Below, piece after piece: positions 12,001 to 46,531 of a stretch of DNA of 64,000 nt. The notes below the pieces were generated by a model that searched no databases, was not told the origin of the DNA, and saw only the letters and a program-made list of their open reading frames with translations. The position numbers and the translations under genes were made by a program. The DNA comes from Cyclina sinensis (Eukaryota; Mollusca; Bivalvia; Venerida; Veneridae), in NCBI GenBank assembly GCA_012932295.1, contig JAAONU010000008.1:34152949-34216948 (forward strand), in the 5' to 3' direction. Numbering within the stretch: the first letter of the stretch is position 1; each line of letters starts with the position of its first letter.

Positions 12001-15000
12001 TTCTATACAGCACTGCATTGTACATTGTTCTATACAGCACTGCATTGTACATTGTTCTATACAGCACAGCATTGTTCTATACAGCACTGCATTGTACATT
12101 GTTCAATACAGCACTGCATTGTACATTGTTCTATACAGCACTGCATTGTACATTGTTCTATACAGCACTGCACTGTACATTGTTCTATACAGCACTGCAT
12201 TGTACATTGTTCTATACAGCACAGCATTGTACATTGTTCTATACAGCACTGCATTGTTCTATACAGCACTACATTGTTCTACACAGCACAGCATTGTACG
12301 TTGTTCTATACAGCACTGCATTGTTCTATACAGCACAGCATTCTACATTGTTCTATACAGCACTGCATTGTTCATTGTTCTATACAGCACTGCACTGTAC
12401 ATTGTTCTATACAGCACTACACTGTACATTGTTCTATACAGCACTGCACTGTACATTGTTCTATACAGCACTGCATTGTACATTGTTCTATACAGCACAT
12501 CATTGTACACTGTTCTATACAGCACAGCATTGTACATTGTTCTATACAGCACAGCACTGTACATTGTTCTATACAGCACAGCATTGTACATTGTTCTATA
12601 CAGCACTGCCTTGTTCATTGTTCTATACAGCACTGCATTGTACATTGTTCTATACAGCACTACACTGTACGTTGTTCTATACAGCATTACATTGTACATT
12701 GTTCTATACAGCACTGCACTGAACATTGTTCTATACAGCACAGCACTGAACAGCAATCTATACAGCACTGCATTGTACATTATCCTATACAGCACAGCAT
12801 TGTTCTATACAGCACTGCATTGTACATTGTTCTATACAGCACAGCATTGTACATTTGTCTATACAGCACATCACTGTACATTGTTCTGCACTGCATTGAA
12901 CATTGTTCTATACAGCACTGCATTATACATCGTTCTATACAGCACAGCATTGTTCATTGTTCTATACAGCACTGCACTGTGCATTGTTCTATACAGCACT
13001 GCATTGTACATTGTTCTATACAGCACAGCATTGTACATTGTTCTATACAGCACTGCACTGTACATTGTTGTACATTGTTCTATACAGCACAGCATTGTAC
13101 ATTGTTCTATACAGCACAGCACTGCGCATTGTTCTATACAGCACTGCATTGTTCTATACAGCACTGCATTGTTCTATACAGCACAGCATTCTACATTGTT
13201 CTATACAGCACAGCATTGTACACTGTTCTATACAGCACAGCATTGTACATTGTTCTATACAGCACAGCATTGTACATTGTTCTATACAGCACAGCATTGT
13301 ACACTGTTCTATACAGCACAGCATTGTACATTGTTCTATACAGCACAGCATTGTACATTGTTCTATACAGCACAGCATTGTACATTGTTCTATACAGCAC
13401 AGCATTGTACATTGTTCTATACAGCACAGCATTGTTCATTGTTCTAAACAGTACAGCATTGTACATTGTTCTATACAGCACAGCATTGTACATTGTTCTA
13501 TACAGCACAGCATTGTACATTGTTCTATACAGCACTGCATTGTATATTGTTCTATACAGCACAGCATTGTATATTGTTCTATACAGCACAGCATTGTACA
13601 TTGTTCTATACAGCACTGCATTGTACATTTTCCTTTACAGCACTGCAGTGTAAATTTTCTATAAAGCACTGGAATGTTTTTTTACACAAGTAAATTCATT
13701 ATGTATTTTTATTGTTTGTAATTGTATGAAAAAATGTCAGTTTACTTGCTCCTGGCCAGTACTTCATGGAAGTGAGTGTCGGACTGTTGAGGATAAACTC
13801 TTCTGTCTTAGGGTCATATGTGGCTGTTGTTTCTAAACCACGTATAAACGTTCCTGAAATAATCAAAATTTGTGATATCTTGTAAGTTACAGTATAATTT
13901 ATGTTACATAACTTACTGCCTTTATTCTTCCATTAAATTTATTGTTTAAGTTACAATTCATGTGCAATTCTTTTTATTTATTTGACATTTGAAAGGAGAA
14001 TATGAAAACAAAACATAATTCAAGCAGCAAAGACTAATGGTGGCATATGGAATAACTATGTTGACCTGCTTCAAGATGAAAGATTATTACAACAAAGTGA
14101 TGGGTCTTTGCTCAATCAGGAATGATCCGAAGTGAGTTTTGGAATATCATCTTTAGTTTTTTGTCATTCAATAACATGGTGCTTTAATAAGCCTAAAGAT
14201 ATTGTGTCTGAATTCGACCTTGACCTGAGAGCTTTATGAATTATGTCAAGGGCTTTAACACATCCAATTACTCTGTTGAAGCTAAGAGATATATGTGACA
14301 AATCTCATTTCTTAATGTAGCACTCAACAAACATGAATACTTCTCAAGAGTTATGGTTGTGGGCAATTAAAAATAGTTGTGGTTCTTGTATATTGTATTT
14401 CCTGTCATTGTGCTTGACCATTGTATGAAGTTGAACTGCATTCCAACCATTAGTTTTCAAGTTATGGTCTGGACAAGGAAAACCAACAAAGGGCAATAAC
14501 TCTGCAAATACTGAAGATGAAGTTATAGCTATTATACACTGCACTTCCTGTCATTGTGCTTGACCATTGTATGAAGTTGCACTGTATTCCAACCAGAAGT
14601 TTTTAAGCAATGCTCTGGACAAGGAAAATCAACAATGGCAATAATTGTGCAAATAGTGAAGATGGAGTTATAGCTCTTGTACAGTGCAGATCCACTCATT
14701 GTGCTTGGCCATTGTATGAAGTTGCAATGAATTCAAACTATTAGTTTTCAAGTTATGCTCCGGACAAGGAAATCCAACACAGGGTAATAACTCTGCAAAT
14801 ACTGAAGATGGAGTTATGACTCTTGAACAATGCACTTTCCTTCATTGTGCTTGACCATTTTATAAAGTTGCAATGAATTCCAAACAGTAGTTTTCAAGTT
14901 ATGCTCTGGACAAGGAAAACCAATAAAGGGCAATAACTCTGCAAATAGTGAAGATGGAGTTATGATTCTTGAACAAAGCGCTTTCTCTCATTGTGCTTGA

Positions 15001-27220: not shown

Positions 27221-27684
27221 GGTTAAAATGAATCATAAGCATATATCAAGTTTGCATTTTTTTTTAATATTGAGGAAGTACATATTCATTTACTTTTTTA
27301 CTATTTTTGTATTTTTTTCTAACATAAATATATATGAGAAGAGATAACAGACTTCCATAGAAATCAGTTTAAACTGTGCATCTTTTTGTTTTATCTGGTT
27401 GCTTATTTTAAACACTCACTGGCAATCTCTATTATAAAATATCTAATATTCATCGTTTTTCTTACAATGACTGTTCAAAACCAACATGCAGGCAAAAACA
27501 AAACCGGAAAAGGTCAAGTTCCCAATTACTACTGAATTTGTTGTCGGCATATAACACCCAACATTTTTGTTTTCTAAAATTCAGTCAAATATTCAATGAG
27601 AACTTTTGAAAAAAGCAAAATTAACCGTCAATCAATCACAATCTTTAGGGAAACTGTTCAATTTGCACATTTAAATAAATCAAT

Positions 27685-27771
27685 CTACTTTCTTCTTGTC
27701 TTTCTGGCGGCCTGCCTGGGGCGAGCCTCCTTAGCTTCGTGAGCTTGCAACACTGCCACAGCTTCCTCAAC
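27685..27771 (-). CDS. Exon 4: end of MLLE domain and C-terminus
   Basis: 87 nt including TAG. It continues the last MLLE helix as [16 protein letters not shown], then a basic tail [12 protein letters not shown]. In vertebrate PABPC1 the same helix ends in a different, less basic tail. The intron before it (27772-30262) carries a decayed mariner. A minus-strand AATAAA at 26844-26849 could end the transcript. Confidence 0.85.
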   Translation of the reverse strand, partial: VEEAVAVLQAHEAKEARPRQAARKTRRK

Positions 27772-30700
27772 CTGTGATACAGTAAAACATCAATTAGATC
27801 AGCTCACACAGTTTCAACCATTTACATCCCCTTTCGGTATAGCATTACTTTGGTAACAAGAATCACATGACATTTTTTTTGCTGTAACAACTAACAAGTG
27901 ACAAAACAGTTTGTACTTTTCAATATTAAGACTTTTGTGCATAAATAGGCCATAATCTTCCTTGCCATTCTTGGTAAACATGTACAAATACGATGGTCGT
28001 CCGGAATGTTTGTAGACACTTGCTTTAATATGATTATTTCGCATTAGAATTAAATGAAACTTTCTCAACCAATGTTCTATGATCGATGCTACAAAATTTC
28101 AAAACTTTCCGTTCTTAAACAACGAAACGGCACGGGTTTATGTAAAGGGATGTATAGGTGTGCGGAGCACGCCATGACGTAACATTGTGAATTTACTTTC
28201 TAAAATGTGACGTCCAAGTTGAAGCGCCGTTATTCTTTCTCAAAATATTCATCGTTGCATCCCACACATTTCCTCTGTCTATCAACCCATTTGTCATACA
28301 CCTTTGAATACCAGTCACTCTCAATTCCAGAAATAATGCGTAGTGTTGCTGTTCTTAGTTCAGTGAAATTCCTGAATTTTATACCTCTGAGTTGCGACTT
28401 TATCAATGGGAACACGGCGAAATCCATCGGCGCTAAGTCCGGACTGTATGGTGCATGCAGCAGAGTCTCAAAACCCCAGTAACTGAATTTCTAGCGAAGT
28501 AGTTGCAGCCGTATGCGCAGGGTCATTGTCCTGATGAAGAATCACATACTCCAAATTCTCTGAAACTGCGGGTCTTTTCTTCCGTAGAGCCTGAATGAGG
28601 TCTCTCCTTAGGACCTGAAAATAGCATTTCAAACCTACTTGCGTCTTTACATTTTAAGGCATTTCACATGTGCAGTTAATATTATAATAATTTAATTCAT
28701 AATTATGTGTATGCTAACGTTTAATTAACAGGTAATAAAAACCACAATTACCTTTCAGTAGTAGTCTGCATTAACAGTGGTCCCGTGGGGTACGGTGTGA
28801 GTGAGGATCATACCGTGTCTATCCATAAATAGAATAAACATGTGCTTTCCCATTGACTTCGTAACTTTGGTTTCTTTGGTGGCGGAGAGTCTTTATGCTT
28901 CCATACGCTAGACTGCTGTTTGCTTTCGGGCTCAAAATAGTGAAACCATGATTCATCAGTTGTAATAATTCTGTCCAAAAATGCATCACCGCCCCCTTTT
29001 CCATTTGCGAAGAAATGATTTTTCTGCTCTAACACGCGCCTCTTTATTATCACCAGAAATTAATCTGGGGAGCCAACGTGCACAAACACGCTCCATTCCA
29101 AAGTTTTCAGTGAGAATTTTATGCACAGTTGTATGGAAATATCACATTGTTAAAAAAAATCTCTTACTGTAAGGCGCCGTTCATCATCAATGACGTTCTT
29201 CACTAACGTTAAGGATTTCTCATTAATAATGCTTGGTCTTCCTGAATGTAAATCTTCTTTAGTTTCAACTCTACCATCATGAAATCGCTTGTACCATTTG
29301 TATACAAGAGCGCAAGAAACAATTGGCCTCTTACTGTTTGAATTAATAAATTCCATCGTCTCTCCAGGCGTTTTCCCAAGCTCCATGCAAAATTTTACTA
29401 GCACACGCTTCTCCGCCCAAACGTCTGACGTCATTTTTGGCGAGTTTTCTTCCATGATTTATTGACAATAGTTCTCCTCACTTTTTTATTTCTAAAACGG
29501 TAACGTTCAATTCATAACAATATGACGTCAGCGTGTAACGTCACGTTATGGAGTGTTTATCATAACGTAACCCGTGATTTTAACAGGTAAAATACCCAAA
29601 GAAAGAAGGCGCATCATGCGGTATGAGACCGGTAAATATCTCCAGTTTTGACGTGCTCCGGTACCCCTATACAAGGTTGCCACGGAAAGGATCACACAAA
29701 GACTGATATCGATTTCATGTTTTTATCTTAATCAAGCTATGCAATTATGATAAAGGGTGTGCTAAACATAAAAAGTTTGAAAAAATAGAATTAACAAAGA
29801 AATATCGGTTGTCTATGGATTTTCCGGACAAGCCTCGTAAGTAAGATATAAAAGAGACATTCTCATATACCAGAATAATAAAACTGTTAAACAATAGGAA
29901 GACAGACAATGTAAACATATTTAGTCATGTATTTCTAATTTCCTAACCAACTTAGGATTTGTTTTCAAGAATATTGGCTAAAGCTTACAGAAACTTTATT
30001 GAAACTCGACATTACTGCTTAATCTGACTGGCTGCAAATGTTTCTATTTCTGCAATCAATGAAGAGGAAAAACTTATTCCTGCGGTTTGAACAAGGTCTG
30101 CTCTAGTTTCTAATCACCAAGTCTTAAAAAACGACCCTAAATATAATTTATCATTTAAAAAAAAAATAAAGAAAGAAAAAAACTGAACTGAAAACTGAAA
30201 GTCTGTCTCAGAAATAAAGAAAGGTTCGGGTTCATTGATTAAGGAAAGCAAATTACACTTACCTTAGCCTTCAGAGATTCCGAAGATTCCAACATGTGCA
30301 GCAACTCAGAGTTGTCAATCTCAAGCAACATGCCGGTGATCTTACCTGCGAGGTCGGGGTATATGCGCTGAATGAGGGGAAACAAACGCTCTCCAAACAT
30401 CTGTTTCTGTTCCCAGGGCGGGGCAGCTGCAAACATACAGGCTGTCAGAGCATCCTGGCCCGCTACAACAAGAGCTTGTATGGGCTGCTATATGAAACAT
30501 AAAATCAAATTTTTCTGAAAGAATACCACCTTTTTTACATTTGATCATTTTTCAGTTTCTGTGAAGGTGCTGTAGTAAGTAAGGAAGTAGCTTCACCGAG
30601 TACTGAACATTTATTAAGATTAAATGGGCTCCAATAAGGTACCCCAAGACTAAACAAGAAATCGGTAGAACCGATGGATTCTCCCCGAATAAAAGCCAAT

Positions 30701-33700
30701 TCCAAAAGGGCTATTGTTTAATATGTATTCTTTTAAAGTATGAAAAATAACAAAAAGCAATAACTCCTAAATTATGCAAAATAGAGTTACGGTTCTTGCA
30801 CGTTGCACTTCTCCTCATAGAGATCTATTTACCAATAAAGTTTCATGTTAATATGTCTTATACTTTGTGAGATATGCCCCGGACAAAAAATAAGTATGAG
30901 AAATTTCAAAAGGCAATAACTGAAAAATTAATAAAGCAAGAGTTATGGTTCTTGTGCACTGCACTGCTCATCAATGAGATCTATCTACTTATAATGTTTC
31001 AAGATGATAACTCTTATACTTTGTGAGATATACCCTGGACAAAGAATAATTATGAGAAATTTCAAAGGCTAATAACCCCAAAAACGATAAAGCAAGAGTT
31101 ATGGTTCTTGTGCACTGCACTGCTCCTTAATGAGATCTAACTACCTATGAAGTTTGGTCTTGATAACTCTCATAGTTTTTGTGTTATCCTCCGGACAAAA
31201 TTATGACGGACGGACGGACGAACGGGACGGACGGACAAAGCGGCAACTATATGCTCGCCCTTCGGGGAGCATAAAAACCGTAAGAAGACATTTCTAGATG
31301 TAGAATCAAGATTGTTAAACATGAACATGTCTTTAAGACTATCTGCTGAAATTCTGAGTTGTGTTACAAGTTCTGCAGCTTTCACTAATTGATCAGTAAC
31401 AATTCAAATGTTCACCTTAAGCCTGAAAACAAGCATACCTGCGGCCCTTTACTCTGAAAGGACAATTTGTTTCTGTTAAGTCTCTGAAGTTTGTTTCTAT
31501 CGTAATCAACACAGGAACACTGTGAATTATTGGTAGTGCCTTCTTCGGAACTTGTGTCTATATTGCCTTTGCTTGACGACATATACAGATGAGAAATTTG
31601 TGTTACACTTCCAAGGCGAACTTGATCCATCAGAATTGTTTCAAGAGAACCATTAGGTTCAAACTTTACACCATGATTTATTCTTACTTTTGAAAATGTT
31701 TCTAGTGCTTCCTTTGATGTTACCAATTTCTCTTGATTTCTTTTCATCAACACAAATGCCTGGGAGATATTATGCATTGCTGTTTTAATACAACCTGTTG
31801 TATTTTCTACATCTTCAAGTTTACCATTGACAGGGTCTATAACAGTCTGAAGCTCCTTGTCTAACTTGTCGGAACACCTCTCTATGTCTTGAATGGCGCG
31901 CTGTTCTTCTTCTTTGATTTTTTCTTCAAGCTTTGCCCTGAGTTGACTTACTTTTTGTACTTCTTGTTCTCTGCTTATTTGAAGGGAAGTTCTCCAACTA
32001 TTCAACTGTTCCAGGCATAGTTTGAATCCTTTTGATGTTATCAAAGCACTGAAGGAACTCTGGGACATAATTTTTTCTTGTTTTCATCAGCTCAGGGATG
32101 AACAATACGTCACGACAATGTCTAAAATTTAAGAAAACAAAATTCAGACCTGTCGTTGTGAATGGACATAAGCCATACTTAGGACAAGAACAAGTATTTC
32201 TCTGGAAATGAAGGCTAGATAGTATAGGAAAGAGTGAAAAAGGAAAGGAATGTTAACAAACACATATCAGTTGGTTAGTGTAGGCACACGTTTATCAAAA
32301 TATAAATTACTTAACATATTTATTGTTTGGTGGTAACCCGTCTTTGAAATTGCTGGTAACAGCCTTAGCACAAGCACCTTTACATCTGATTACTGTATCA
32401 TTTATTTTTAACTTGTATCATTTTTGCGAGCATAGGAAGTAGATGTGTTTACCCACTGTTATATTTGTAATACCATAAATAATTATACTGATAAAAATTA
32501 TCATAAATGACAACGAACAACAAAAGAATTAAACATAAATTATATGTTGTTTGTCAGTTGAGGTAAATGCACTGCTTATACATATAATAGCTAATAAATT
32601 CTTTCAGAACAAGAAATTATTATTCATAATGTAAATGTTGATATCAAATAACTTAAAACTATAACAGCATACTTTTTCAAGAAATATTTCATGAGAACAT
32701 CCAAACTAGGCCTTCATGAATAACAATGTATTTTCACCAAAAAAAACCCTTAAGTGTGACCTTAACCTTTAAGGATTGTCTCAATTTTCATCACATTTAC
32801 CCAAAATTTTTTTCAAAATTCATCTATGAATAACACAAACTCTTCAGAAAACATGACTATATATTGACAAGCGTATCATTACATTTGACATACAAATGTG
32901 ACCTCGACCTTTGAGGTGTAGGCCTAATTCTTGCGTGCGACATGTTGTCATCATGTCAAAGACATTTATTCCAAGTCATTTCAAAATCCACCCAGGGATG
33001 TCAGAATTGTTGACCAGACACGATCATCAATGCTCCTTTATGAAATATTCACATAATGACTTTGGACGTACAAGTGTGACCTTGACCTCTGAGCTGGAAA
33101 TCTGATTCTTGCGTGCATCACGTCACCATGTCAAACACATTTATGCCAAGTCATCTTAAAATACATCCAGGAATGACAAAATTGTTGACCGCACACAACC
33201 ATCAATGTACTTCTATGAAAATTTTCTTTCAAGTCCAAGTGTGACCTTGACTTTTGATCTACAAACCTGGGTCTCTGAGTGCCACACGTTTATGCAAATT
33301 TATTTCAAAATCTATCCATGACTGAGTAAGTTACGGACTGGACAAAAAGTGGACAGACTGATGGATGGACAATTCAAAAACTATATGCCACCCTTTGGGG
33401 GCATAACAAAAACACATTTGATCTTGCACAAAAAAGAACTAGAGTTTATTTTTGAGAAAAACATATGTCTCCCCGCCCCCAGCCTCAAATGTCATTTACC
33501 ATGAAAAATACTATTCAATTTTGGATAAATCAATGGCTTTAACTTTGCTTGAAATCATCCAGCCAGTATAAGCCAATACTATTCGTAACTAAACTTGCTA
33601 ATGATGATTGCTGTGAAGTTTCGTCAAAATATAACCAGCTGTTATGGAGATATACCCAACTGTATTTGACTTTGGACTAATGAAGGGCTACAACTAGCTA

Positions 33701-36700
33701 AAAATCATCCAACTGAAACAAGATGAAAAACTGCATAACTACTCAAGTTTATAATCATTCATGTGAAGTTTCCTCAAATTCAGTCAACAGATATGGAGAT
33801 ATGATCAAATGTATTCAAATTTGGACAAGTTAAGGGCCATATTTCCACTGTAAATTAGCAGATAGGAACACATCAGTAATACTTGTTATTTCACTTGCGA
33901 ACAATCATTTCTGTGACGTTTTGTCAAAATCAGACAAGTGGCTATTGGAGTTATGCCAATGTGTGTTCAAATACGGACAAATCAAGGCCTGTAACTCCAC
34001 TAAAATCAGCTGGCCGGCAAACATCAATAATACTTGTAACCACACTTGCTAACAATCAATTCCTGTGAAGTTTTTGAGGTTTTTTAATCAGGCTATCGGT
34101 TATGGAAATATGCCCAAATGTGTTCCAATTTGGACCAATCAAGGCCCATAACCTTGCATGAAATCACTGAACTGGAAAATTTCTATGATATGCTCCACTA
34201 GGTTTGGTACCAATTAATCATAGCAAATTCCATTGAACTTAAACCAGTGGTTATGGAGAAGAAGCACAGGTAAATTGAGATATATACAGACAGACAGAAA
34301 GCAAAAAACAATACATCTCCCACCCCACTATGTGGGGAAGTGGAGGGGGAGGGGAGAATGATATAATTACAATGCAAGATCCACAATTTTGTTTATTAAT
34401 ACAAAATCATATCCGTTTAACAAAAGATGTCAAAATGACATTTTTGCCCCACCCAATTTGAAGTTTGCAGGCTGTGTTTCGAATGTTACTCAAGTTACTG
34501 AAGAGAAACAGTTCTCAGTTTCAAGGTGACCTTGAATCTCACCTTAATAACAACAGAAGCTTTCTACACAATGAAAGCCACCCTATGAAGGCTGCAGGCT
34601 CTAGGCCAAATGATACTTGAGTTATTAAGTGGAAAAGGTTATCAAATTAAATGTGATCATGACCTTGACCTTTATCTTACTGAACGAAAAAGGCGACTTC
34701 TACTCAATAAGGGCAACCATCCTGTGAAGCATAAAACTGTGGGTCAAATGGTACACAGATCATTCACCAGAAACCATTTTCACTTTCAAGATGACCACGA
34801 CCTTGACAAACTGAAGTTAAAAAATAATAAGTATTTTCTTCTCAAAAAGACAACCACCTTATGATGTTTGAATGCTGTGTGTCAAATTACACTGGAGTTA
34901 TTGAGCAAAAAAAAAATTTCCAAATTCAAGGTGAACATGACTCTGACGTTTGACCAACTGATCCCAAAAAATAGGGACCTTCTACTCATTAAGGGCAAAC
35001 ATTCCATGAAGACTGAATGTTGGAAGTCAAATGGTACTCAAGTTATTAAGCAGACATCATTTTCAAATTCAAGGTGACCAAGACCTTTGACCTTCTGACA
35101 TCAAAACAATAGGGTTCATCCGCTGTATGGAATTTGAATGCTCTGGATCATACCGTACCCAAGCTATTAAGCAAACACCATTTTCAAATTGAAGTTGACC
35201 ATGACCTCGACTTTATGACCCTAATTACAATAGGTGTCTTCTGTTCAATAGGATAAACTTTATTATGAAGTTTGGAGGGTGTAGGTGACATGGTACTCAA
35301 GTTATTGAGGAGAAACAGTTTTCATATTCAATGTGACAGTGATCTTGACCTTTAACCTTCTGAACAATAGGGGTCTATTACTCAATAAGGGCAACCAGCC
35401 TATGAAGTTTGAAGACATGGGATCAGATGATACTCAAGTTCATGGGTGGGAATTAGTTTTTCAAATCGAAGGTGATTGTGACCATAACCTTTGACCTACT
35501 GACTTCAAAACAATATGCATTTTCAACTCAGGGTAAATAAACACTCCATGACACTTGAAGGCTCTGGGTCAAATGATGCTTGAGTTATTAAGCGGAAACC
35601 ATTTCAAATTCAAGATACATTTAAGTAACCATAACTTTGACCTACTTACCAAAAATCAATAGGGATCTTTACCACGTAAGGGCAACCACCTTGTGAAATT
35701 TGACGGCTGTGGGTCAATGGTACTCGAGTTATTGAGTGGAAACCAATTTCAATGTGAAGGTGATGATGACCTTGACCTTTGACTTACTGTCTGAAACTCA
35801 AAAGAGATCTTCCACTCAATAAGTGCAACCATTTTATGAAGTTTGACATTTACCTTTGATCTATGACCTGAAAAACAATAGGTGTCTTCTACACAATAAG
35901 GGCAAACAACTCTGGACCATGCAAATGGTACTTGAGCTATTCAGTGGAAATGGCTTCTGAATTCAAGGTGACACTGACCTTTACATGTACCTTTAACCTA
36001 CTGACCTCAAAAACACTTGGGGTCTTGTACACAATAAAAGCAACCACTATAGTAAGTTTGAAGGCTCTTGGTCAAATGATACTTGAGTTATTTAGTGGAA
36101 ACCATTTGCAAATTGAAGGTGACCATGACCTTGAACTTTGACCTACTGACCCTAGAAACTATTGGAATGTTTAACTCAATAAGGGCAACCCTCCTATGAT
36201 TTTTGAAGGCTGTGGTACTCAAGTTACTAAACGGACATGGTTTTCAAATTCAAGGTGACAGTAACCTACTGACTTCAAAAACAATAGGTTTCTTCTACTC
36301 AATAAGCCTTATGAAGTTAGCAGGTAGGATGCAGCTGAAATGGTACTCAAGTTGTCTACCGACCAACCTACCAACCAAGTGACCGACACCTGCAAATCAA
36401 TACACCTCCTCTTCTCTGAAGCGGGGCATAACAAAATGTGTAAATCATTTCCCAGAATGTCTTAATCTGGATTGATTTTACATTACCATTATCATTATAG
36501 TTATCAACAAGACTAAGTGGCGGCGTGGCTGAGTGGTTAACGCGTCGGACTAGAAGTCAAAGGATTGCTAGCCGCATGGGTTCAAACCCATTCAGGGCCA
36601 AGCCATTGTTTCCTTGAGCAAGAAACTTTACACTCATTCCTTAGAACTGGTTGGTTCCAGGAACGGATTCGAGAGTGTGTCTATAAGCTAAAAGCTTCCC

Positions 36701-39115
36701 ACACAATCGAACTAGAAATAATGTTGGTATAAACTAACAAGACTAAGCTAATTTCACAAGTCTTAGATTTATTTCTTCTCAAATAAGATCCACACAATAA
36801 AAATTTTGCAATTTTTATTTAAGTAACAGTTGGACTCAGACATACATAAATATTTGAGAACTCATTTTGGTCAAGATTTTAATGTGCAATATCTGTTTTA
36901 GCAGAAATAAAGTTCTTACTGCTACTAGATTTGAGTCATATTGAAATTTCAGTTTTATTAACTGGAATTGATTATTAGAATTTTTGGTAATGTTAATGAA
37001 ATTAGTATATTGAAACTGACATTTTTAAGTAAATAAAGGTTGTTCTTTTCCTTTTCCTGTAGTTTAAGAAAGTTTTCTTTTCTGCACATCATTCCAACAC
37101 AGCATCATTTAATGCCACACGTTAACCGTAGGTATTTGGAAACTGCAAAATTTGTGACTCCTTGCAATCAAAAATTGAAAATAAGTTTTTGAAAATATTT
37201 CATAAAACAACTTTATTTTAGTCCCCGAAGACAACAATATATTATGTTTCTTCTTAAAAAAGCAAGAGAATTAAAACGAATAATATGATAATTGGGATGA
37301 TTTTATGTGACCTTGGACAAGTCGCACTATGTAATTATATTTAGAATGATCATCTTGATTTAAATATATTATCTTACTTCCAAATGCTTAAGCTTGTATT
37401 TTTGCAGAGGTTTAGATGTCAGACTATCTTATATATCACATTGATGTTTTCGTTTGTAAAAGCAGTGCTCATTCGTACAGAACAGTTCTACGTGTATTTG
37501 CAATTCATTACTGTATGAATTTTACTCAGTTTAAGAGAAACACTAATTCAAATAACTGACTAGTTTAATATAATAATAATACTAAAGAGATGATAATGTA
37601 AAGCTGATTCCGGTAACTAAGGTCAATTCATGTAAAATGTGGATCCTACATTAAACATTATCTTCATGATGAACCTTGATTTTACCTGTCATGAAGAATA
37701 AATGTTCAAACTACAATGGATACCGGGTAATACTTTTTCCTTCAGAAAAAAACTGAATTTTTGGTTAAAATTGAAGATTTATTATGTCCCACTGACAAAA
37801 AATACCATTATCGCCAGTTTATGCAAATGTTCACACTAATGCATACACACACATTGCTAAAGTTTATTTTCATTTTTTATCAGATGTCAGCAGATATAAA
37901 AGTACCTACTTTCGTTTTCTGTAACTTCACCGCTATTGCTGAACACAGAGTTATTTTTTAGAAACACAACATTGTAATTATAGAACTTGATCAATTTAGA
38001 CTAGTTCCAAGAATGTTTTTACAACTAATCAAATAACTTCATCGTTTGTAATTGTACATCTGTATAAGGTTTTGATCACCATGTTTCCGAGTACATGTGG
38101 TCTATCAATCTATATAAGTTAATTTAAGTTCATGTAGATCTGCATTTATTGTATACATGACGCATTCAAGTTTGACTACATGACAAATTTTGGCAAAGTG
38201 CGCTCGGCGTTTCATAAAGATTTTGATAATTTTATCCTTAAACATCAGAAATATATCTTATCTTCCACAAAAAAATAATATGATGATAAAAATGAAAACT
38301 TCAAATTAGTTAAAGAGGCTGTACATGTACTCCAGATTTGATATAAAAATATCTTTTACATAAATTAAATATCTAGATGCCGTGAGATTATAACAACATG
38401 ATATTTTACTTCAATACTGATTATAAAAGTCAAAATAGAACAAAAAAATACGTTCGCTTCAGCTTGATTTGAACTCTGGACCCTCATTTTAACAAAATAT
38501 TACCAACGCTTATACTGTCACGAGTATCACTGCAAGGTAAATAACAATAATTAACTTTAAATATTATACAATATAGTTATACCGTCGTGTTATGGTATAG
38601 CACTATGAAAGGAAAAAAAATCAATTTATAATGTGATTATCTCACGTATTTTTTGCAAGTTAGTTAGTTTTTAAGCATTAGTCAAAAATATTACAAGAAA
38701 TCTATAATACGAGAAAACTTTCTTTTTTTTGTCATCTGATGGCCAGCCCCTTTAAGAAAAAGCAACTCACATATCTAGTCTATTTTTACCTGTGTTCTAC
38801 AGCCATACATGTGTTACATCCGACTTCATCATGATTCTCACAAAACATATCAACTTGTTTGTTCATGTGTTTTTCACAACGCTCAGTGGGGACTAACAGC
38901 AGTTTGCCTTCCTGGCCATATTCTTTGTCCAGAAGTTTGTGTGTTCTTAGTGCTGGAACTTTGCTGTGGATGTTCACACACGATGAACAGTAGTAGTCCT
39001 GACATTCTACACAATATGTCTCTGCGCTGACATTTTTATTTTCGTCTTTACACACAGAACACCATACACTGATTATTTCATCCGATGAACTATGGTAGCT
39101 GTCCTTTGATGCCAT
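27685..39115 (-). CDS. B-box / coiled-coil / MLLE protein (four-exon model, possible TRIM-PABP fusion)
   Basis: Four minus-strand exons fit together: two B-boxes (39115-38790, ends phase 2), a coiled coil (32121-31439, starts phase 2, ends phase 0), and two MLLE exons (30487-30263 and 27771-27685, phase 0 throughout, stop TAG). The B-boxes are zinc-binding modules of TRIM-family proteins and the coiled coil mediates oligomerisation. MLLE domains, known from poly(A)-binding protein and UBR5, bind PAM2 peptides of mRNA regulators. No RING, RRM or NHL sequence is seen on this strand in the neighbourhood. A one-base frame break lies in exon 2. The exons and phases are seen; their joining in one mRNA is inferred. 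Alternatively a truncated TRIM-like gene sits beside a displaced 3' piece of a PABP gene. Confidence 0.6.
28153..29672 (-). mobile_element. Mariner element with imperfect terminal inverted repeats
   Basis: Left end TATAGGTGTGCGGAGCACG; right end, read inward, TATAGGGGTACCGGAGCACG. The inverted repeats are about 26 bp and TA is present at both ends, as expected for the mariner target. The element is ~1.5 kb and sits in the last intron of the TRIM/MLLE gene. Confidence 0.8.
28230..29455 (-). pseudogene. Decayed mariner transposase
   Basis: N-terminal helix-turn-helix part (29455-29150) has [19 protein letters not shown] and [13 protein letters not shown]. The catalytic parts follow: [30 protein letters not shown], and [16 protein letters not shown] with [10 protein letters not shown]. 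The three aspartates of the mariner DD34D triad are all present, with the expected spacing between the second and third. Frame breaks near 29150, 29060 and 28480 and a stop near 28757 make it inactive. A GT-AG bounded 137-nt stretch (28615-28751) interrupts the frame between the first and second catalytic blocks. Confidence 0.88.
30263..30487 (-). CDS. Exon 3: MLLE (PABC) domain
   Basis: 225 nt, 75 codons, phase 0 at both ends. It reads [40 protein letters not shown] and [20 protein letters not shown], ending [10 protein letters not shown]. It matches the C-terminus of animal cytoplasmic poly(A)-binding protein almost residue for residue, including the KITGMLLE peptide-binding core. The acceptor can be placed at 30487 or 30484 (ATATAG then CAG), both in frame. 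The donor is GTAAGT. Confidence 0.9.
30655..31276. repeat. Pearl-like element in the intron between coiled-coil and MLLE exons
   Basis: Units of ~150 bp with GAGTTATGGTTCTTGTGCAC and ATTATGAGAAATTTCAAA. The right end is a GACGGACGGACG tract followed by CTATATGCTCGCCCTTCGG and GGAGCATAA. It is the inverted counterpart of the element at 7438. Confidence 0.7.
31439..32121 (-). CDS. Exon 2: end of B-box 2 and coiled coil, with a frame break
   Basis: 683 nt. The acceptor follows AAATTTTAG; the first codons complete [18 protein letters not shown], the standard B-box 2 tail. That frame later meets a stop, while the long open frame from 32068 ([19 protein letters not shown], then [20 protein letters not shown]) is shifted by one base. 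An A-run at 32072-32077 is the simplest place for the break. The coiled coil is followed by [20 protein letters not shown] and [12 protein letters not shown], typical of bivalve TRIM56-like proteins. The donor GTATGC follows KGPQ in phase 0. Confidence 0.75.
32745..33410. repeat. Pearl-like tandem-repeat element
   Basis: About four units with GTGTGACCTTGACCT, TTCTTGCGTGC and CCAAGTCATTTCAAAATCCA. It ends AGACTGATGGATGGACAATT, then CTATATGCCACCCTTTGGG and GGCATAAC. Confidence 0.65.
33460..34350. repeat. Pearl-like tandem-repeat element
   Basis: Five to six units of ~140 bp with TTGGACAAATCAAGGCC (variants), AATACTTGTAACCACACTTG and TCCTGTGAAGTTT. It ends ATACAGACAGACAGAAAG then CCACCCCACTATGTGGGG. 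Confidence 0.6.
34425..36430. repeat. Long pearl-like tandem-repeat element
   Basis: About 14 units of ~140 bp with the pattern ACTCAAGTTATTAAG, ATTTTCAAATTCAAGGTGAC, CCTTGACCTTTGACCTACTG and CTCAATAAGGGCAACC. It opens near AAAGATGTCAAAATGACA and ends CCGACCAACCTACCAACC, then GAAGCGGGGCATAAC. Confidence 0.7.
36518..36735 (+). mobile_element. tRNA-derived SINE with 12-bp target duplication
   Basis: tRNA-Ser-like head: A-box GTGGCTGAGTGGTTAACG, anticodon-arm GGACTAGAAGTC, B-box GGGTTCAAACCC. The body contains TTTCCTTGAGCAAGAAAC and TTCCCACACAATCGAAC. The 12-bp AACAAGACTAAG flanks it at 36506-36517 and 36736-36747. The target duplication shows LINE-driven retroposition. The body resembles conserved SINE central domains found across animals, but I cannot name the family. 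Confidence 0.88.
38314..38751. mobile_element. TTAA-flanked MITE with tRNA-like interior (copy A)
   Basis: TTAA at 38310-38313 and 38752-38755. The inverted ends are AGAGGCTGTACATG and, from the right, AGGGGCTGGCCATC. On the minus strand the interior has AGAGTTCAAATCAAGC, like a tRNA B box. It is the reverse complement of the copy at 52341. Confidence 0.82.
38790..39115 (-). CDS. Exon 1: tandem B-box zinc fingers, TRIM-like
   Basis: 326 nt starting at ATG 39115 ([13 protein letters not shown]). B-box 1 runs from CSVCKDENK through [12 protein letters not shown] to [11 protein letters not shown]-box 2 runs from [16 protein letters not shown] through CNTCMAVEH, with the last Cys (HCRDV) supplied by the next exon. 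All zinc ligands are present. There is no RING finger. The donor GTAAAA leaves phase 2. A TTAA-flanked MITE ends only 38 bp from this exon. Confidence 0.88.
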
Positions 39116-39439
39116 TTTGGTTATTATAAAATTGATATTCTGTTAAAATAAAGAGTTAGACGTTTAGACCCCTTCACAACTTGACCCCTTTTTATCTTAA
39201 ATTAAAGATGATACTTAGAGTTTATGCAAACTGGCAAACGCCAGTTCACTTTTAATAATCATGCTTAAATTAAAGCATTGACAAGCACTTTGGGCAAGTC
39301 TAGCTAATTATGCAACACTATACAATTATGAAACAAGTTAACATTAATTATCTGATACTATCTATAGTATCTTTAACACATCTCTTGAAGTTTATTTTTC
39401 CCCCGAAAGTGTGATTCTTTTTGTTCTTGATCATTTTCC

Positions 39440-40030
39440 ATCAAATATTACTTATTGCTATAATGGACCTGTCAAAGGCTTTCGACTGTCTTCAATATAA
39501 AATTTTACTACGTAAACTAAAATCCTATGGCCTGACAGACAACTAATCAAAGTTGCTAACTTCATATTTACTAATAGGAAACAACAAATTAAGATTAGAA
39601 ATGTTACTAGTGGCTGGTTGGAAATAGTAAAGGGAGTGCCGCAGGGCCCATTCTTGGGCTATTACTTTTTAATGTATTTCTAAATGATATTTTCTAATTT
39701 ATACAATAAGGATCACTTTACAACAATACAGATGACAACTCTCTGCCTTATTCTTCATTAAACTTTGATGACATTATTAAAGTTCTTCAAAATGAAAGTA
39801 ATATCCTGATCAGCTGGTTCTCAAACAATTGTATGCAAGCCCAGAAGAGTTTCAAGCTATAGCTATAGGTAACAAAAACATGATAAAAAACCTGAATTTA
39901 GTATCAAAACTGCAAACAGTGACTGTGAAGATGTTGTTAAGCTGTTGGAAGTAATCTTAGATTTTGCCCTATCATTTGAAAATCATATCAGTAATCTTGG
40001 TAGTAAAGCTGCACAACAGTTTAATATTCA
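39440..40030 (+). pseudogene. Non-LTR retrotransposon reverse transcriptase fragment (5' piece)
   Basis: Fragments in shifting frames give MDLSKAFDCLQYKILLRKLK, YGLTDN, IVKGVPQGP and, later, VVKLLEVILDFALSFENHIS, all typical of Jockey/CR1-like reverse transcriptase and thumb. The segment is interrupted at 40031 by the repeat complex and its C-terminal end resumes at 46532. Confidence 0.82.
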
Positions 40031-41868
40031 AACAAGAGGGCCATGATGGCCCTAGACCGCTCACCTGAGTATTTTGGCTGTAGGTTTGCTGTTAAGCAGT
40101 ATTTCATGTTTTAATTAAAAAAAATATGTAAGTAATGTAAATATAAATATGTAAACATGTAAAATATCAGTCAATAAATACAGGCTCTAAGACAAAAAGT
40201 AGAAATATCTATCTTAAGCTATGGTGACCTTGACCTTAACCCAGTGACCTCAAACCCTACCACGGAATATAGGATCCATGCAGGGAAAATTTTGCTGTAG
40301 CTTTAAAACAAAAAGTAGGTCAAAAATATAGGTCATGATATGACATTTTTTAAATCGGAACAAAAAACTGTACACATGGTCCAAATTTCACGGCCATAGC
40401 TCCAAAAACAAAAAGTAGGTCAGTAGGTCAAAAATATAGGTCATGCGATGACATTTTTGAAATCGAAACGAAAAACTGTGCACATGGTCCAAATTTCATT
40501 GCTTTAGCTAAAAAACAAAAAAGGAGGTCAGTAGGTCAAAAATGTAGGTCATGCGATGACCTTTTTGAAATCGGAACAAAAAACTGTACACATGGTCCAA
40601 ATTTCATTGCCATAGCTCCAAAAACAAAAAGTAGGTTTGTAGGTCAAATATATAGGTCATGCGATGACATTTTTGAAATCAAAACGAAAAACTGTGCACA
40701 TGGTTTAAATTTCATTACTGTAGCTAAATAACAAAAAGTAGGTCGGTAGGTCAAAAATATAGGCCATGATATGACGTTTTTGAAATTGGAACAAAAAACT
40801 GTATACATGATCCAAATTTCATTGCCATAGCTCCAAAAAAAAAGTAGGTCAGTAGGTCAAAAGTAAAGGTCATGCGATGACATTTTTAAAATCAAAACTA
40901 AAAACTGTGCACACAGTCCAAATTTTATTGCTAAAAAACAAAAAAGGAGGTCAGTAGGTCATGCGATGACCTTTATGAAATCGGAACAAAAAACTGTACA
41001 CGTGGTCCAAATTTCATTGCCATAGCTCCAAAAAAAAATAAGGTTTGTAGGTCAAATATATAGGTCATGCGATGACATTTTTGAAATCAAAACGAAAAAC
41101 TGTGCACATGGTTTAAATTTCATTGCTGTAGCTAAAAAACAAAAAGTAGGTCGGTAGGTCAAAAATATAGGTCATAATATGACGTTTTTGAAATTGGAAC
41201 AAAAAACTGTATACATGATCCAAATTTCATTGCCATAGCTCAAAAAAAAAGTAGGTCAGTAGGTCAAAAGTAAAGGTCATGCGATGACATTTTTAAAATC
41301 AAAACTAAAAACTGTGCACACAGTCCAAATTTTATTGCTAAAAAACAAAAAAGGAGGTCAGTAGGTCATGCGATGACCTTTATGAAATCGGAACAAAAAA
41401 CTGTACACGTGGTCCAAATTTCATTGCCATAGCTCCAAAAACAAAAAGTAGGTCTGTAGGTCAAATATATAGGTCATGCGATGACATTTTTGAAATCAAA
41501 ACGAAAAACTGTGCACATCGTTTAAATTTCATTGCTGTAGCTAAAAACAAAAAGTAGGTCGGTAGGTCAAAAATATAGATGATGATATGACGTTTTTGAA
41601 ATTGGAACAAAAAACTGTATACATGATCCAAATTTCATTGGCATAGCTCAAAAAAAAGTAGGTCAGTAGGTCAAAAGTAAAGGTCATGCGATGACATTTT
41701 TAAAATCAAAACTAAAAACTGTGCACACAGTCCAAATTTTATTGCTGTAGCTAAAAAAAACAATGTAGGTCAGTAGGTCAAAAATATAGGTCAAGAAATA
41801 ATGTTTTTGAAATCATTTTGAAAAAAAATACAAATGGTCCAAATTTTGTTGCCATAGCGAAAAACTTA
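40031..41868. repeat. Tandem-repeat element with ~408-bp higher-order period
   Basis: Opens AACAAGAGGGCCATGATGGC then GCTCACCTGAG. Units of ~102 bp carry AAAAACTGTNCACATGGTCC, AAATTTCATTGC and GTAGGTCAAAAATATAGGTC. A distinctive unit with GTCAAAAGTAAAGGTCATGC recurs near 40859, 41266 and 41671, so four units form a higher-order repeat. Confidence 0.75.
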
Positions 41869-44105
41869 AACGAGAGGGCCATGATGGCCCTGGATCGCTC
41901 ACCTTAGTGCTTTGGCTGTAGGTTTGCTGTTAAGCAGTATTTTATTTTTTAATTGAAAATATATAAGTTCCTACAAACCAAATATGTAAAATATAAATAA
42001 AGTCTCTATGACAGAAAGTAGAAATATCTATTATAAGCTATGGTAACATTGACCTTGACCCAGTGACCTCAAACCCTACCCATGGGTAGAGGTCCATGCA
42101 AGGAACCTATATATTAAATATCAAAGATATTGGTCTATAAATGAAGGCTTTATGAGGTACAGTAAATAAATCTATTTTAGCCTCCGTGACCTTTAACCTA
42201 ATCTAATAATTTGAACAACCAAACAACCTTTTTGACAAACTGCCAGGACTGAAACAGTAGCCTCTAGAGCCTTAACAAGATATTTCTATTTTTGGGCTCT
42301 GTGACCTAGTTTTTGACCCCAGATGACCCATATTCGAACTTGACCTAGAAACCATCGAAATAATCTTTCTGACATATCTCCAGAATATTTGGGCTGAAAA
42401 TGTTACCTCTACAGTGTAAACAATGTTTTTCCATATACAGGCTGTGTGACCTAGTTTTTAACCCCACATAATTCATATTCCGACTTGAGCTAGAAATCAT
42501 CTTAACAAGCTTTCTGACATATTACAAGAATATTTGGGATAAAAGTGTTACCTCTAAAGTGCTAACAAGGTTTTACCTTATTTGGGCTGTGTGACCTAGT
42601 TTTTGACCCCACATGACCCATATTCAAACTTGAGCTAGAAATTATCAAAACAACCTTTCCGGCATATTTCCAGGATATTTTGGCTGAAAATGTTACCTCT
42701 AGAGTGATAAAAAGGTTTTTTCCATATTTGGTCTCAGTGACCTAGTTTTTGACCCCAGATGATCCATATTCGAACCTGGGCTAGAAATCACCCAAATAAC
42801 CTTTCTGATATATTACAAGGACATTTGGACTGAAAATGTGACCTCTATAGTGTTAACAAGGTTTTTCCATATACAGGCTCTGTGACCTAGTTTTTGACCC
42901 CAGATGACCCATATTCGAACTTGAGCTAGAAATCATGGAAACTACCTATCTGACATATTTCCAGGATATTTGGGCTGAAAATGTTACCTCTAGAGTGTTA
43001 ACAAGGTTTTTCCATATACAGGCTGTGTGACCTAGTTTTTGACCTCACATGACCCATATTCAACTTGAGCTAGAAATCAACCTAGCAAGCCTTCTGACAG
43101 TTTTTCAGGAAATTTGGGCTAAAAATGTTACGTCTAGAGTGTTAACAAGGTTTTACCATATTTGGGCTGTGTGACCTAGTTTTTGACCCCACGTGACCCA
43201 TATTCAAACTTGAGCTAGAAATCATCAAAACAATTTTCCTGACATATTTCCAGGATATTTGGGCTGAAAATGTTACCTCTAGAGTGACAAAAAGGTTTTT
43301 CCATATTTGGTCTGTGTGACCTAGTTTTTGACCCCACATGACCCATATTCGAACCTGAGCTAGAAATCATCCAAATAACCTTTCTGACATATTACAATTA
43401 TATTTTGGCTGAAAATGTTACCTCTAAAGTGTTAACAAGGTTTTTCCATATTTGGGCTCTGTGACCTAGTTTTCAACCCCAGATGATCCATATTCGAACT
43501 TCGGCTAGAAATCACCCAAATAACCTTTCTAACATATTACAAGGAAATTTGGACTGAAAAATGTAACCTCTAAAGTGTAAGCAAGGTTTTTCCATATTTG
43601 GGCTCTGTGACCTAGTTTTTTACCCCAGATGACCCATATTCGAACTTGAGCTAGAAATCATGCAAAACAACCTTTCTGACAAATTTCCAGGATATTCGGG
43701 CTGAAAATCTTACCTCAAGGGTGTTAACAAAGTGTTTCCATATTTGGGCTGTGTGACCTAGTTTTTTACCCCAGATGACCCATATTCAACTTGGGCTAGA
43801 AATCAACCAAACAACCTTTCTGACAAATTGCCAGGACATTTGGACAGAAACAGTAGCCTCTAGAGCCTTAACAAGATTTTTCTATTTTTAGGTCATGTGA
43901 CCTAGTTTTTGACCCCAGATGACCCATATTCGAATTCGTCCGAGTAATTGCTGGGACAAACATCCTGACCAAGTTTCGTGACAATTGGAACAAAAATGTG
44001 ACCAGTAGAGTGTTAACGAACTAAGTGTGAATTGACGACGGACGACAGACGACGGACATTCATCGATCCTAATAGCTCACCCTGAGCCAGCTCAGGTGAG
44101 CTAAA
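41869..44105. repeat. Tandem-repeat element, ~145-bp unit, 12 copies
   Basis: Second head AACGAGAGGGCCATGATGGC at about 41869. Units are anchored on GTGACCTAGTTTTTGACCCC and GAGCTAGAAATCATC, with period about 145 bp from 42300 to 43900. It ends GACGACGGACGACAGACGAC, then AGCTCAGGTGAGCTAAAAA, whose CTCAGGTGAGC mirrors the head's GCTCACCTGAG. Confidence 0.8.
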
Positions 44106-46531
44106 AATGAGATAAATTAGGGCCTGGGGGAGTGACCCCCACGGGAGGGGATATGACCCCACTGTGGTCACGGTGCATACTACCAAATATCTAAGCTCCA
44201 GGCCTTGCAGTTTGTGACAAGAAGATTTTAAAAGTTTTTTGCTATATAACTCTATGTAAAATATGTGACCTCTTGGGCGGGGCCAGTTTTGACGCAGGGC
44301 CCATGACTTGAACACTCTTGGTAGAGGTCTACTAGACAATGCTCAACACCAAATATCTAAGCTCCACGCCTTGTAGTTTCTAACAAGAAGATTTTTAAAG
44401 TTTTCCCTACATGTATATAACTCTATGTAAATCAAATAAGCCCTTGGCGGGGTCAGTTCTGACCCCAGGGTCATAATTTGAACAATCTTTGTAGAGGTCC
44501 ACTAAATGATGCCTCATACCAAATATCTAAGCTCCAGGCCTTGCGTTTTCAGACAAGAAGATTTTTAAAAGTTTTCCCTATATAACTCTATGTAAATCAA
44601 GTGACCCCCATGGCGGGGCCAGTTCTGACCCCAGGGTCATAATTTGAACAATCTTTGAAGAGGTCCACTAGATAATGCCTCATACCAAATATCTAAGCTC
44701 CATGCGTTGTGGTTTCAGACAAGAAGATTTTTAAAGTTTTCCCTATATAACTCTATGTAAATCAGGTGCCCCCCAGGGCGGGGCCAGTTCTGACCCCAGG
44801 GGCACAATTTGAACAATCTCTGTAAAGGTCAACTAGATGATGCCTCGTACCAAATATCTAAGCTCCAGGCCTTGCAGTTTCTGACAAGAAGATTTCTAAA
44901 GAATTTACTATATAACACTATGTAAAACATGTGACCCCTTGGGCGGAGCCAATTCGACCCAGGGGCCATGATTTGAACAATGTTGGTAGAGGTCTACTAG
45001 ACAATGCTACATACCAAATATCTAAGCTCCAGGCCTTGCGGTTTCTGACAAGAAGATTTTTAAAGTTTTCCCTATATAACTCTATGTAAATCAAGTCACC
45101 CCCAGGGAGGGCCAGTTCTGACCCCAGGGTCATAATTTGAACAGTCTTTGAAGAGGTCCACTAGATAATTCCTCAGACCAAATATCTAAGCTCCAGGCCT
45201 TGTGGTTTCAGACAAGAAGATTTTTAACGTTTTCCCTATATAATTCTATGTAGATCAAGTGACTCCCAGGGCAGGGCCCGTTCTGATCCCAGGGTCATTA
45301 TTTGAACAATCTTGGTAGAGGTCTACTAGACAATGCTACACACCAAATATCTAAGCTCCATGCCTTGCGGTTTCAGACAGTCCCAAGAAGATTTTTAAAG
45401 TTTTCCCTATATAACTCTATGTAAATCAAGTAACCCCCAGGGCGGGGCCAGTTCTGACCCCTGGGTCATAATTTGAACAATCTTTGTAGAGGTCCACTAA
45501 ATGATGCCTCATACCAAATATCTAAGCTCCAGGCCTTGTGGTTTCAGACAAGAAGATTTTTAAAAGTTTTCCCTATATAACTCTATGTAAATCAAGTCAC
45601 CCCCAGGGAGGGCCAGTTCTGACCCCAGGGTCATAATTTGAACAGTGTTTGAAGAGGTCCACTAGATAATTCCTCAGACCAAATATCTAAGCTCCAGGCC
45701 TTGTGGTTTCAGACAAGAAGATTTTTAACGTTTTCCCTATATAACTCTATGTAAATCAAGTGCCCCCCAGGGCGGGGCCCGTTCTGATCCCAGGGTCATT
45801 ATTTGAACAATCTTGGTAGAGGTCTACTAGACAATGCTACACACCAAATATCTAAGCTCCATGCCTTGAGGTTTCAGACAGTCACAAGAAGATTTTTAAA
45901 GTTTTCCCTATATATAACTCTATGTAAATCAAGTGACCCCCAGGGCGGGGCCAGTTCTGACCCCAGGGTCATAATTTGAACAATCTTTGTAGAGGTCCAC
46001 TAGATAATGCCTCATACCAAATATCTAAGCTCCAGGCCTTGTGGTTTCAGACAAGAAGATTATTAAAGTTTTCCCTATATAACTATGTAAATCAAGTGAC
46101 CCCCCGGGCGGGGCCAGTTCTGACCCCAGGGTCATAATTTGAACAATCTTTGTAGAGGTCCACTAAATGATGCCTCATACCAAATATCTAAGCTCCAGGC
46201 CTTGTGGTTTCTGACAAGAAGATTTTTAAAAGTTTTCCCTATATAACTCTATGTAAATCAAGTGCCCCCCAGGGCGGGGCCAGTTCTGACCCCAGGGTCA
46301 TTATTTGAACAATCTTGGTAGAGGTCCACTATAGATGCTCAATACCAAATATCTAAGCTCCATGCCTTGCGGTTTCTGACAAGCAGAGTTTTAAAGTTTT
46401 CCTATATAAGTCTATGTAAAATCAATTGACCCCCCGGGCGGGCCAAATTTGACCCCAGGGGCATAATTTGAACAAATTTGATAGAGATCCACTAGACAAT
46501 GCTACATACCAAATCTTAAGGCTCAGGGCTA
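44106..46531. repeat. Tandem-repeat array, ~166-bp unit, 14 copies
   Basis: Units are anchored on ATATCTAAGCTCCAGGCCTT at about 44190, 44355, 44525, 44690, 44856, 45019, 45185 and onward to 46350. They share CAGACAAGAAGATTTTTAAA, GGCGGGGCCAGTTCTGACCC and TCATAATTTGAACAATC. The same unit forms the elements at 60083 and parts of 61346 and 15850. Confidence 0.85.

What the first reader, a model, noticed from the sequence alone, without database searches (positions are those of the whole stretch)
27685..39115. Possible B-box/coiled-coil protein fused to a poly(A)-binding-protein MLLE domain
Four same-strand exons have matching splice phases (2/2, 0/0, 0/0). Two encode a TRIM-like double B-box and coiled coil, two encode a complete MLLE domain and stop. 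No RRM exon of a PABP gene is seen on the minus strand in the 33 kb upstream, and no NHL or other TRIM C-terminal domain is seen where expected. MLLE is known to me only in PABPs and UBR5-type ligases. A TRIM-like scaffold with an MLLE would bring PAM2-carrying mRNA regulators to a B-box oligomer, with possible roles in RNA control or antiviral defence (inference).
Basis: partly seen in the sequence, partly recalled or inferred. Interest (0 to 1): 0.87.

Follow-up and report, generated by a model that had tools for sequence, protein, structure and literature searches.

The report
Clam B-box and poly(A)-protein gene fusion
In a clam-like genome, a B-box (TRIM-like) gene appears to have lost its usual tail and gained the protein-docking end of the neighbouring poly(A)-binding-protein gene; the copy in this window has a broken reading frame, a sister copy is intact, and predicted proteins in another clam, a freshwater mussel and a carp have a similar make-up.

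Summary
The exons are there (minus strand): B-box exon 39115-38790, coiled-coil exon 32121-31439, MLLE exon 30487-30263, tail exon 27771-27685. The joined frame is not open in the window: in exon 2 the B-box frame stops after 40 codons and the coiled coil is in another frame. A sister copy 0.93 Mb away (97.5% identical over 13 kb; haplotype or duplicate, unresolved) is open through all four exons, 440 codons. A complete PABPC gene lies about 35-42 kb beyond the window, same strand. Exons 3 and 4, their intron and part of the 3' UTR are an old DNA-level copy of its end; the last ~21 nt and donor of exon 2 look PABPC-derived too (1 of 540 AG|GT sites). The N-terminal part belongs to a clam B-box/coiled-coil/NHL family; its propeller is missing here. 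Between the copies the fused exons change like introns (12 N: 3 S), unlike PABPC (1 N: 9 S), so present function is doubtful. Predicted Mercenaria, Sinanodonta and carp proteins join TRIM-like N-termini to PABPC C-termini: perhaps a recurrent, TRIMCyp-like fusion. No transcript evidence.

The parts
38790..39115 (-). Exon 1: start codon, B-box 1 and most of B-box 2 (108 codons + 2 nt, donor AG|GTAAAA)
   Evidence: Pfam PF00643 1.5e-8, PF22586 1.3e-7; 54.9% identical to Mercenaria P0121 over 113 aligned residues
31439..32121 (-). Exon 2: end of B-box 2, coiled coil, start of first NHL blade, then fusion end; frame-broken in this copy (B-box frame stops at 31998-32000)
   Evidence: in own-genome paralogues L026/L027 the frame opens at the same place and runs on through the NHL propeller
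31439..31459 (-). Probable PABPC-derived end of exon 2 (FQSKGPQ; PABPC linker exon ends FQNNRPQ) with its donor CAG|GTATGC
   Evidence: 24 of 33 nt identical around the donor; of 540 AG|GT sites in the window only this one reaches that; the reading frame agrees
30488..31438 (-). Intron 2: PABPC-like intron (295 nt in PABPC) enlarged by a 156-bp tandem repeat (30736-31200)
30263..30487 (-). Exon 3: MLLE domain, copy of the PABPC MLLE exon
   Evidence: Pfam MLLE 3.1e-26; 92.9% nt identity to own PABPC exon (sister copy 94.7%); PAM2-pocket residues kept
27685..27771 (-). Exon 4: end of MLLE ([16 protein letters not shown]) and a divergent tail, stop
27261..27684 (-). 3' UTR related to the PABPC 3' UTR; ATTAAA at 27268
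   Evidence: 65.7% over 540 aligned nt of the stretch 27684-27100; blastn match 27261-27824
28190..29465 (-). Mariner-like transposase remnants inside intron 3
   Evidence: HTH_48 E 0.012, Transposase_1 E 0.11, both below cut-off

Best explanation
A fusion locus born at DNA level. A copy of the 3' end of the nearby PABPC gene (probably from the last ~21 nt of its linker exon, through MLLE exon, intron and tail exon into the 3' UTR) was joined to a clam B-box/coiled-coil/NHL gene broken in its first propeller blade, so that an MLLE domain stands where the propeller was. An intact product (sister copy, 440 aa) would be a RING-less B-box/coiled-coil oligomer with several MLLE pockets: it would bind PAM2-carrying mRNA regulators without binding poly(A), and so act as a decoy or scaffold. 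The copy in the window is frame-broken and, as assembled, should not make it. Shown here: the exons, the PABPC origin of exons 3 and 4, the two frames, the missing propeller. Inferred: the break point inside exon 2 (moderate evidence), splicing across exons 2-3, expression, oligomerisation, PAM2 binding, any biological role.
For: Full PABPC gene about 35 kb away on the same strand, with the same last-exon intron position. MLLE exon 93-95% identical to the PABPC exon; the intron is kept, the 3' UTR is 65.7% identical and intron ends are partly alignable, so a DNA-level copy and not a retrocopy. Donor region of exon 2 resembles the PABPC linker-exon end (24 of 33, 1 of 540 sites). Two own paralogues carry coiled coil and propeller in one frame with the same border; no propeller nearby. 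Sister copy open over 1323 nt. Mercenaria P0035 is co-linear. All 18 PAM2-contact residues taken from PMC2854688 (passages) are kept in window and sister copy.
Against: Between the two copies the fused CDS has 12 N: 3 S changes and 1.14% divergence against 1.23% in its introns (summed), i.e. no constraint; PABPC has 1 N: 9 S (Fisher p 0.001). On the fusion branch, 6 N and about half of 4 fixed S changes in exon 3 is also near neutral. The homology of the exon-2 end is modest: the 160-nt alignment score of 60 is reached by 0 of 300 shuffles, but by 5 of 1580 other stretches of the window. The sister copy has about 1.85 kb of extra sequence 75 nt past the stop, in what would be its 3' UTR. No RNA evidence. 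The low synonymous divergence of exon 3 against its flanks could be gene conversion rather than selection.
Confidence: 0.7

Rival explanations
1. Two unconnected relics: a truncated TRIM-like gene (its coiled-coil frame can end at the stop 31414-31412) and, downstream, a decaying copy of the PABPC 3' end. No chimeric protein was ever made.
For: The coiled-coil frame meets a stop as the ninth codon past the donor. Neutral-looking change between copies; the window MLLE carries odd residues at conserved sites. A relative truncated in the first blade exists (P0122, 353 aa).
Against: Sister copy is open over four exons with agreeing phases. The donor region looks PABPC-derived and is in frame. MLLE-coding parts are far better kept than flanks. 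Co-linear Mercenaria protein.
Confidence: 0.22
2. The frame break and odd residues of the window copy are assembly errors in one of two haplotypes; the gene is intact and working in the animal.
For: The break is a length difference in an A-run. The two regions, about 100 kb, align in order in blocks mostly 91-97% identical with insertions, as two haplotypes would.
Against: The ten PABPC exon stretches compared between the copies have no length difference in coding sequence; the one gap lies in an intron. Even apart from the break the fused CDS shows 12 N: 3 S between copies.
Confidence: 0.25
3. Exons 3 and 4 are alternative last exons of the PABPC gene upstream, spliced to RRM exons from beyond the window.
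For: Same strand, compatible phase, a PABPC donor of the same type.
Against: That PABPC has its own MLLE exon, tail exon and 3' UTR, and the B-box gene lies between.
Confidence: 0.05

Closest known systems
PABPC (cytoplasmic poly(A)-binding protein), C-terminal MLLE/PABC
   Same: MLLE domain, its exon border SLKAK|VEEAV, intron and 3' UTR relatedness; the 18 PAM2-pocket residues checked are kept
   Different: No RRM; linker reduced to about 7 residues; C-terminal tail diverged
Clam B-box/coiled-coil/NHL TRIM-like family (Mercenaria P0121-P0132 and relatives)
   Same: Two B-boxes, coiled coil, exon-1/exon-2 border, no RING in the members scanned
   Different: NHL propeller lost, MLLE in its place
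Mercenaria mercenaria P0035 ('polyadenylate-binding protein 1A-like', 505 aa)
   Same: B-box, B-box, coiled coil, PABPC MLLE; co-linear, 35% identity over 98%
   Different: Keeps the last PABPC linker exon; its B-box part is 37% identical to ours while ours is 50% identical to P0121; same or separate origin unresolved
P0137 (Cyprinus carpio) and P0139 (Sinanodonta woodiana)
   Same: TRIM-type N-terminus joined to PABPC linker and MLLE
   Different: RING present; other TRIM partners and other break points in PABPC
TRIMCyp (TRIM5-cyclophilin A)
   Same: Works-like analogy: a captured host docking domain joined to a TRIM N-terminus, several independent births (PMC6677749, abstract)
   Different: Donor gene, docking domain and mechanism differ; TRIMCyp's retrotransposition origin is recalled, ours is a DNA-level copy; RING absent here

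Membership tests
TRIM/RBCC proteins | RING finger at the N-terminus | tested here: not met
   Exon 1 begins at the same methionine as RING-less relatives; Pfam finds no RING in exon 1 or in the sister protein. No search for a RING exon further upstream was run
TRIM/RBCC proteins | B-box 1 and B-box 2 | tested here: met
TRIM/RBCC proteins | Coiled coil after the B-boxes | tested here: inconclusive
   Aligned with the coiled coil of the clam family; long helix 139-236 in the P0035 model; crude heptad scan weak; in the window it is out of frame with the B-boxes
Clam B-box/coiled-coil/NHL family | NHL propeller | tested here: not met
   No match at E<=1 in 164 kb; one of E 0.47 in the 100-kb sister region; control found
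PABPC | Four RRMs | tested here: not met
   No RRM exon in the fusion locus; the RRM exons belong to the separate gene at C17:34259396-34251945
PABPC-type MLLE domain | KITGMLLE signature and PAM2 pocket | tested here: met
PABPC-type MLLE domain | Binds PAM2 peptides | not testable with these tools
   Needs a binding assay
TRIMCyp-like fusion | Chimeric transcript | not testable with these tools
   No RNA data held

The most novel reading that the evidence does not exclude
TRIM-like genes in animals repeatedly capture the C-terminal end of PABPC (clam window locus, Mercenaria, Sinanodonta, carp), making a class of TRIM-MLLE proteins that pull PAM2-carrying mRNA regulators into B-box/coiled-coil assemblies: a TRIMCyp-like convergent invention aimed at translation and mRNA decay instead of capsids.
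Probability: 0.25. Interest if true: 0.82.

Novelty: new variant of a known kind. Interest (0 to 1): 0.56.

Why it matters
The introduction of PMC9249222 (passages read) names only UBR5 and Rrm4-type proteins besides PABPC1 as described MLLE carriers. A TRIM-like protein with an MLLE would couple a B-box scaffold to the docking hub of mRNA translation and decay. Even if this copy is dying, the locus shows a route (partial duplication of the PABPC 3' end next to a TRIM-like gene), and the carp and mussel models make recurrence testable with RNA-seq.

Tried and rejected
Tried without result. (1) genome search did not complete in 23 calls; it answered in 16, 29 and 59. So whether the two copies are haplotypes or a true duplication, and which own paralogue is nearest to the fusion, were not settled; the whole-genome search with P0023 did not complete and was replaced by a local tblastn over 264 kb. 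(2) Tree of 17 B-box/coiled-coil rows: 2 of 14 inner branches supported; it neither joins nor separates the window fusion and P0035 (the row of P0133, from Ruditapes, bears a wrong Mercenaria label there). (3) AlphaFold model of P0035: mean pLDDT 57; Foldseek finds MLLE structures (best E 3.4e-6) but B-box hits only at E 0.2 or worse and the KAP1 tripartite motif at 0.61; weak support only. (4) The exon-2 end against PABPC: with the last 60 nt alone the alignment is not special (19 of 300 shuffles as good), with the first 120 nt of the intron 1 of 300, and a control stretch of 3 kb gave score 48, reached by 16 of 300 shuffles; the 160-nt score of 60 is reached by 5 of 1580 window stretches. 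I lean on the test anchored at the predicted donor (1 of 540). (5) Selection: pairwise dN/dS of exon 3 against PABPC (0.03/0.15) looked like constraint, but assigning changes to branches removes it. (6) The first two protein searches used a read-through whose X stood upstream of the true frame break, so about 14 residues of it were out of frame; the third search used the sister copy.

Considered and rejected: UBR5-type MLLE (the best solved relatives are PABPC1/3, UBR5 far weaker); processed retrocopy of PABPC (the intron is kept).
Full report
What is in the sequence. On the minus strand lie exon 1 (39115-38790), exon 2 (32121-31439), exon 3 (30487-30263) and exon 4 (27771-27685), all with GT/AG borders. 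Exon 1 has two B-box matches and exon 3 a PABPC-type MLLE (Pfam 3.1e-26; best solved relatives are human PABPC1). The joined frame is not open: from exon 1 the frame enters exon 2 as [12 protein letters not shown] and stops after 40 codons, while the coiled coil is in another frame.

Where it lies. The window is C17:34152949-34216948 of a 903-Mb genome with five MLLE matches (6 candidates, all scored): two in full PABPC genes, two in copies of this locus, and one at C17:19.55 Mb that I take for UBR5 without testing it. The PABPC gene next to the window runs from C17:34259396 down to a tail exon starting at 34251945, about 35-42 kb right of the window end, same strand. A second region (C17:33245001-33345000) repeats PABPC, B-box exon and MLLE exons in the same order; in-order blocks are mostly 91-97% identical, 97.5% over window 27609-41026. 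Haplotypes or duplication: not settled.

The sister copy. It is open across the same four exons: 326+685+225+87 = 1323 nt, 440 codons and stop. Relative to it the window copy has a 2-nt length difference in an A-run in exon 2 and five amino-acid changes in exon 3. Compared with PABPC, four of those five and the one synonymous change are derived in the window copy; the fifth, at the site where PABPC has Q, cannot be assigned. The sister region has about 1.85 kb of extra sequence at the place of window ~27610, 75 nt past the stop.

PABPC origin. Exon 3 is 92.9% (window) or 94.7% (sister) identical to the PABPC MLLE exon; the intron position after SLKAK is the same; the 3' UTR is 65.7% identical over 540 aligned nt; intron ends are weakly alignable at best (47-60%). 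That fits an old DNA-level copy, not a retrocopy. In exon 4 the first 48 nt, which finish the MLLE, differ at 6 sites; the remaining 39 nt, the tail, are much more divergent. The last 21 nt of exon 2 plus 12 nt of intron match the PABPC linker-exon donor at 24 of 33 sites; of 540 AG|GT sites in the window only this one reaches that, and the reading frame agrees (FQSKGPQ against FQNNRPQ). The longer alignment is less decisive: 0 of 300 shuffles reach its score, but 5 of 1580 other stretches of the window do.

TRIM-like origin. The relatives of the N-terminal part at E<=0.001 are 13 clam proteins (12 Mercenaria, 1 Ruditapes) out of 1331 candidates; none of the 13 lists an MLLE. In the two own-genome paralogues read (L026, L027) the second exon's frame opens at the same place and runs through coiled coil and NHL propeller for 453 and 464 codons; other paralogues carry the B-boxes in the same frame too. 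Here that exon ends at the first blade, and no propeller was found in 164 kb around.

Selection. Between window and sister copy the fused CDS has 12 nonsynonymous and 3 synonymous changes, the length difference set aside (exon 1: 1/1, exon 2: 6/0, exon 3: 5/1, exon 4: 0/1): 15 in 1321 sites (1.14%) against 123 in 9965 intron sites (1.23%) (summed). PABPC: 1 N and 9 S in nine exon stretches, 1713 nt; the tenth stretch, 255 nt, was skipped by the script because of a 4-column gap, which lies in intron sequence, and adds two silent changes by eye; the tail exon was not compared; noncoding 2.29%. Fisher p 0.001 for 9 S: 1 N against 3 S: 12 N; the fusion does not differ from a 75:25 neutral split. 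Against PABPC, exon 3 of the sister copy has dN 0.029 and dS 0.149, much less divergence than its flanks: past constraint or gene conversion. I conclude that recent constraint is not detectable, and that the window copy is probably a null allele or copy.

Relatives with the same architecture. A search with the sister-copy protein scored 7993 candidates and listed 120 of 5804 matches; the other matches were not seen, and I judged the 120 by their listed domains and by the sequences fetched. Three of them join a TRIM-like N-terminus to a PABPC C-terminus: Mercenaria P0035 (B-boxes by my reading and pattern; Pfam B-box below cut-off), carp P0137 (RING, B-box, TRIM_CC, MLLE) and Sinanodonta P0139 (RING, B-box below cut-off, MLLE). 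Their PABPC parts start at different places, by eye: carp just after RRM4 (recalled layout), Sinanodonta mid-linker, Mercenaria at the start of the last linker exon. Acropora P0008, listed, has RING plus three MLLE. All are automatic gene models; a shared annotation artefact is possible. A 17-row tree did not resolve whether P0035 and the window fusion share an origin.

How it would work. By established PABPC biology MLLE binds PAM2 peptides; all 18 contact residues I took from PMC2854688 (passages) are kept in both copies. A B-box/coiled-coil assembly with several MLLE and no RRM would compete with PABPC for PAM2 proteins or concentrate them (inference). A TRIM-PABP link exists elsewhere: TRIM25 binds and ubiquitinates PABPC4 (PMC9481182, passages). 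No RING, so no ligase activity of its own is expected. No result here speaks for an antiviral role.

Literature. PMC9249222 (passages) names UBR5 and Rrm4 as the only described MLLE carriers besides PABPC1. Full-text searches for MLLE or PABP with TRIM showed no report of such a fusion: 1 paper; 0; 0; 1; 509 papers with at least 3 of 4 terms, only 10 listed; listings read, PMC open-licence papers only. TRIMCyp independence: PMC6677749 (abstract and outline). PMC3503706 on TRIM families has no occurrence of MLLE or PABP in its main text (term search). PMC8382680 on bivalve gene families (passages) lists one B-box orthogroup in a table of gene families that include immune ones; it was not used further.

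Noticed in passing
P0001, P0002, P0004, P0006, P0014, P0134: RRM-less predicted proteins made of two or more MLLE domains in octopus, sea slug, abalone, sea cucumber and feather star (P0001 read by eye, the others by Pfam).
   Followed up: partly
P0010 (Mytilus trossulus), P0017/P0019 (unnamed), P0008 (Acropora); MLLE combined with MIF4G, cold-shock (listed domain only) and RING domains in predicted proteins: MLLE seems to move between proteins more than described.
   Followed up: partly
C17:33245001-33345000 against window and right flank: About 100 kb present twice, same orientation, 0.93 Mb apart, in-order blocks mostly 91-97% identical; haplotype or duplication not settled.
   Followed up: partly
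window ~27610 (sister region 33252480-33254326): The sister copy has about 1.85 kb of extra sequence, partly tandem-repeat-like, just past the stop of exon 4; this explains the apparent drop in identity at 27684-27520.
   Followed up: partly
window 11980-13669, 40314-41865, 42246-43934, 44181-46514: Long tandem arrays (27, 108, 145 and 165 bp units); some align in many registers between the two regions.
   Followed up: no
window 39516-39683 (+): Short frame that looks like part of a reverse transcriptase (by eye; no search run).
   Followed up: no
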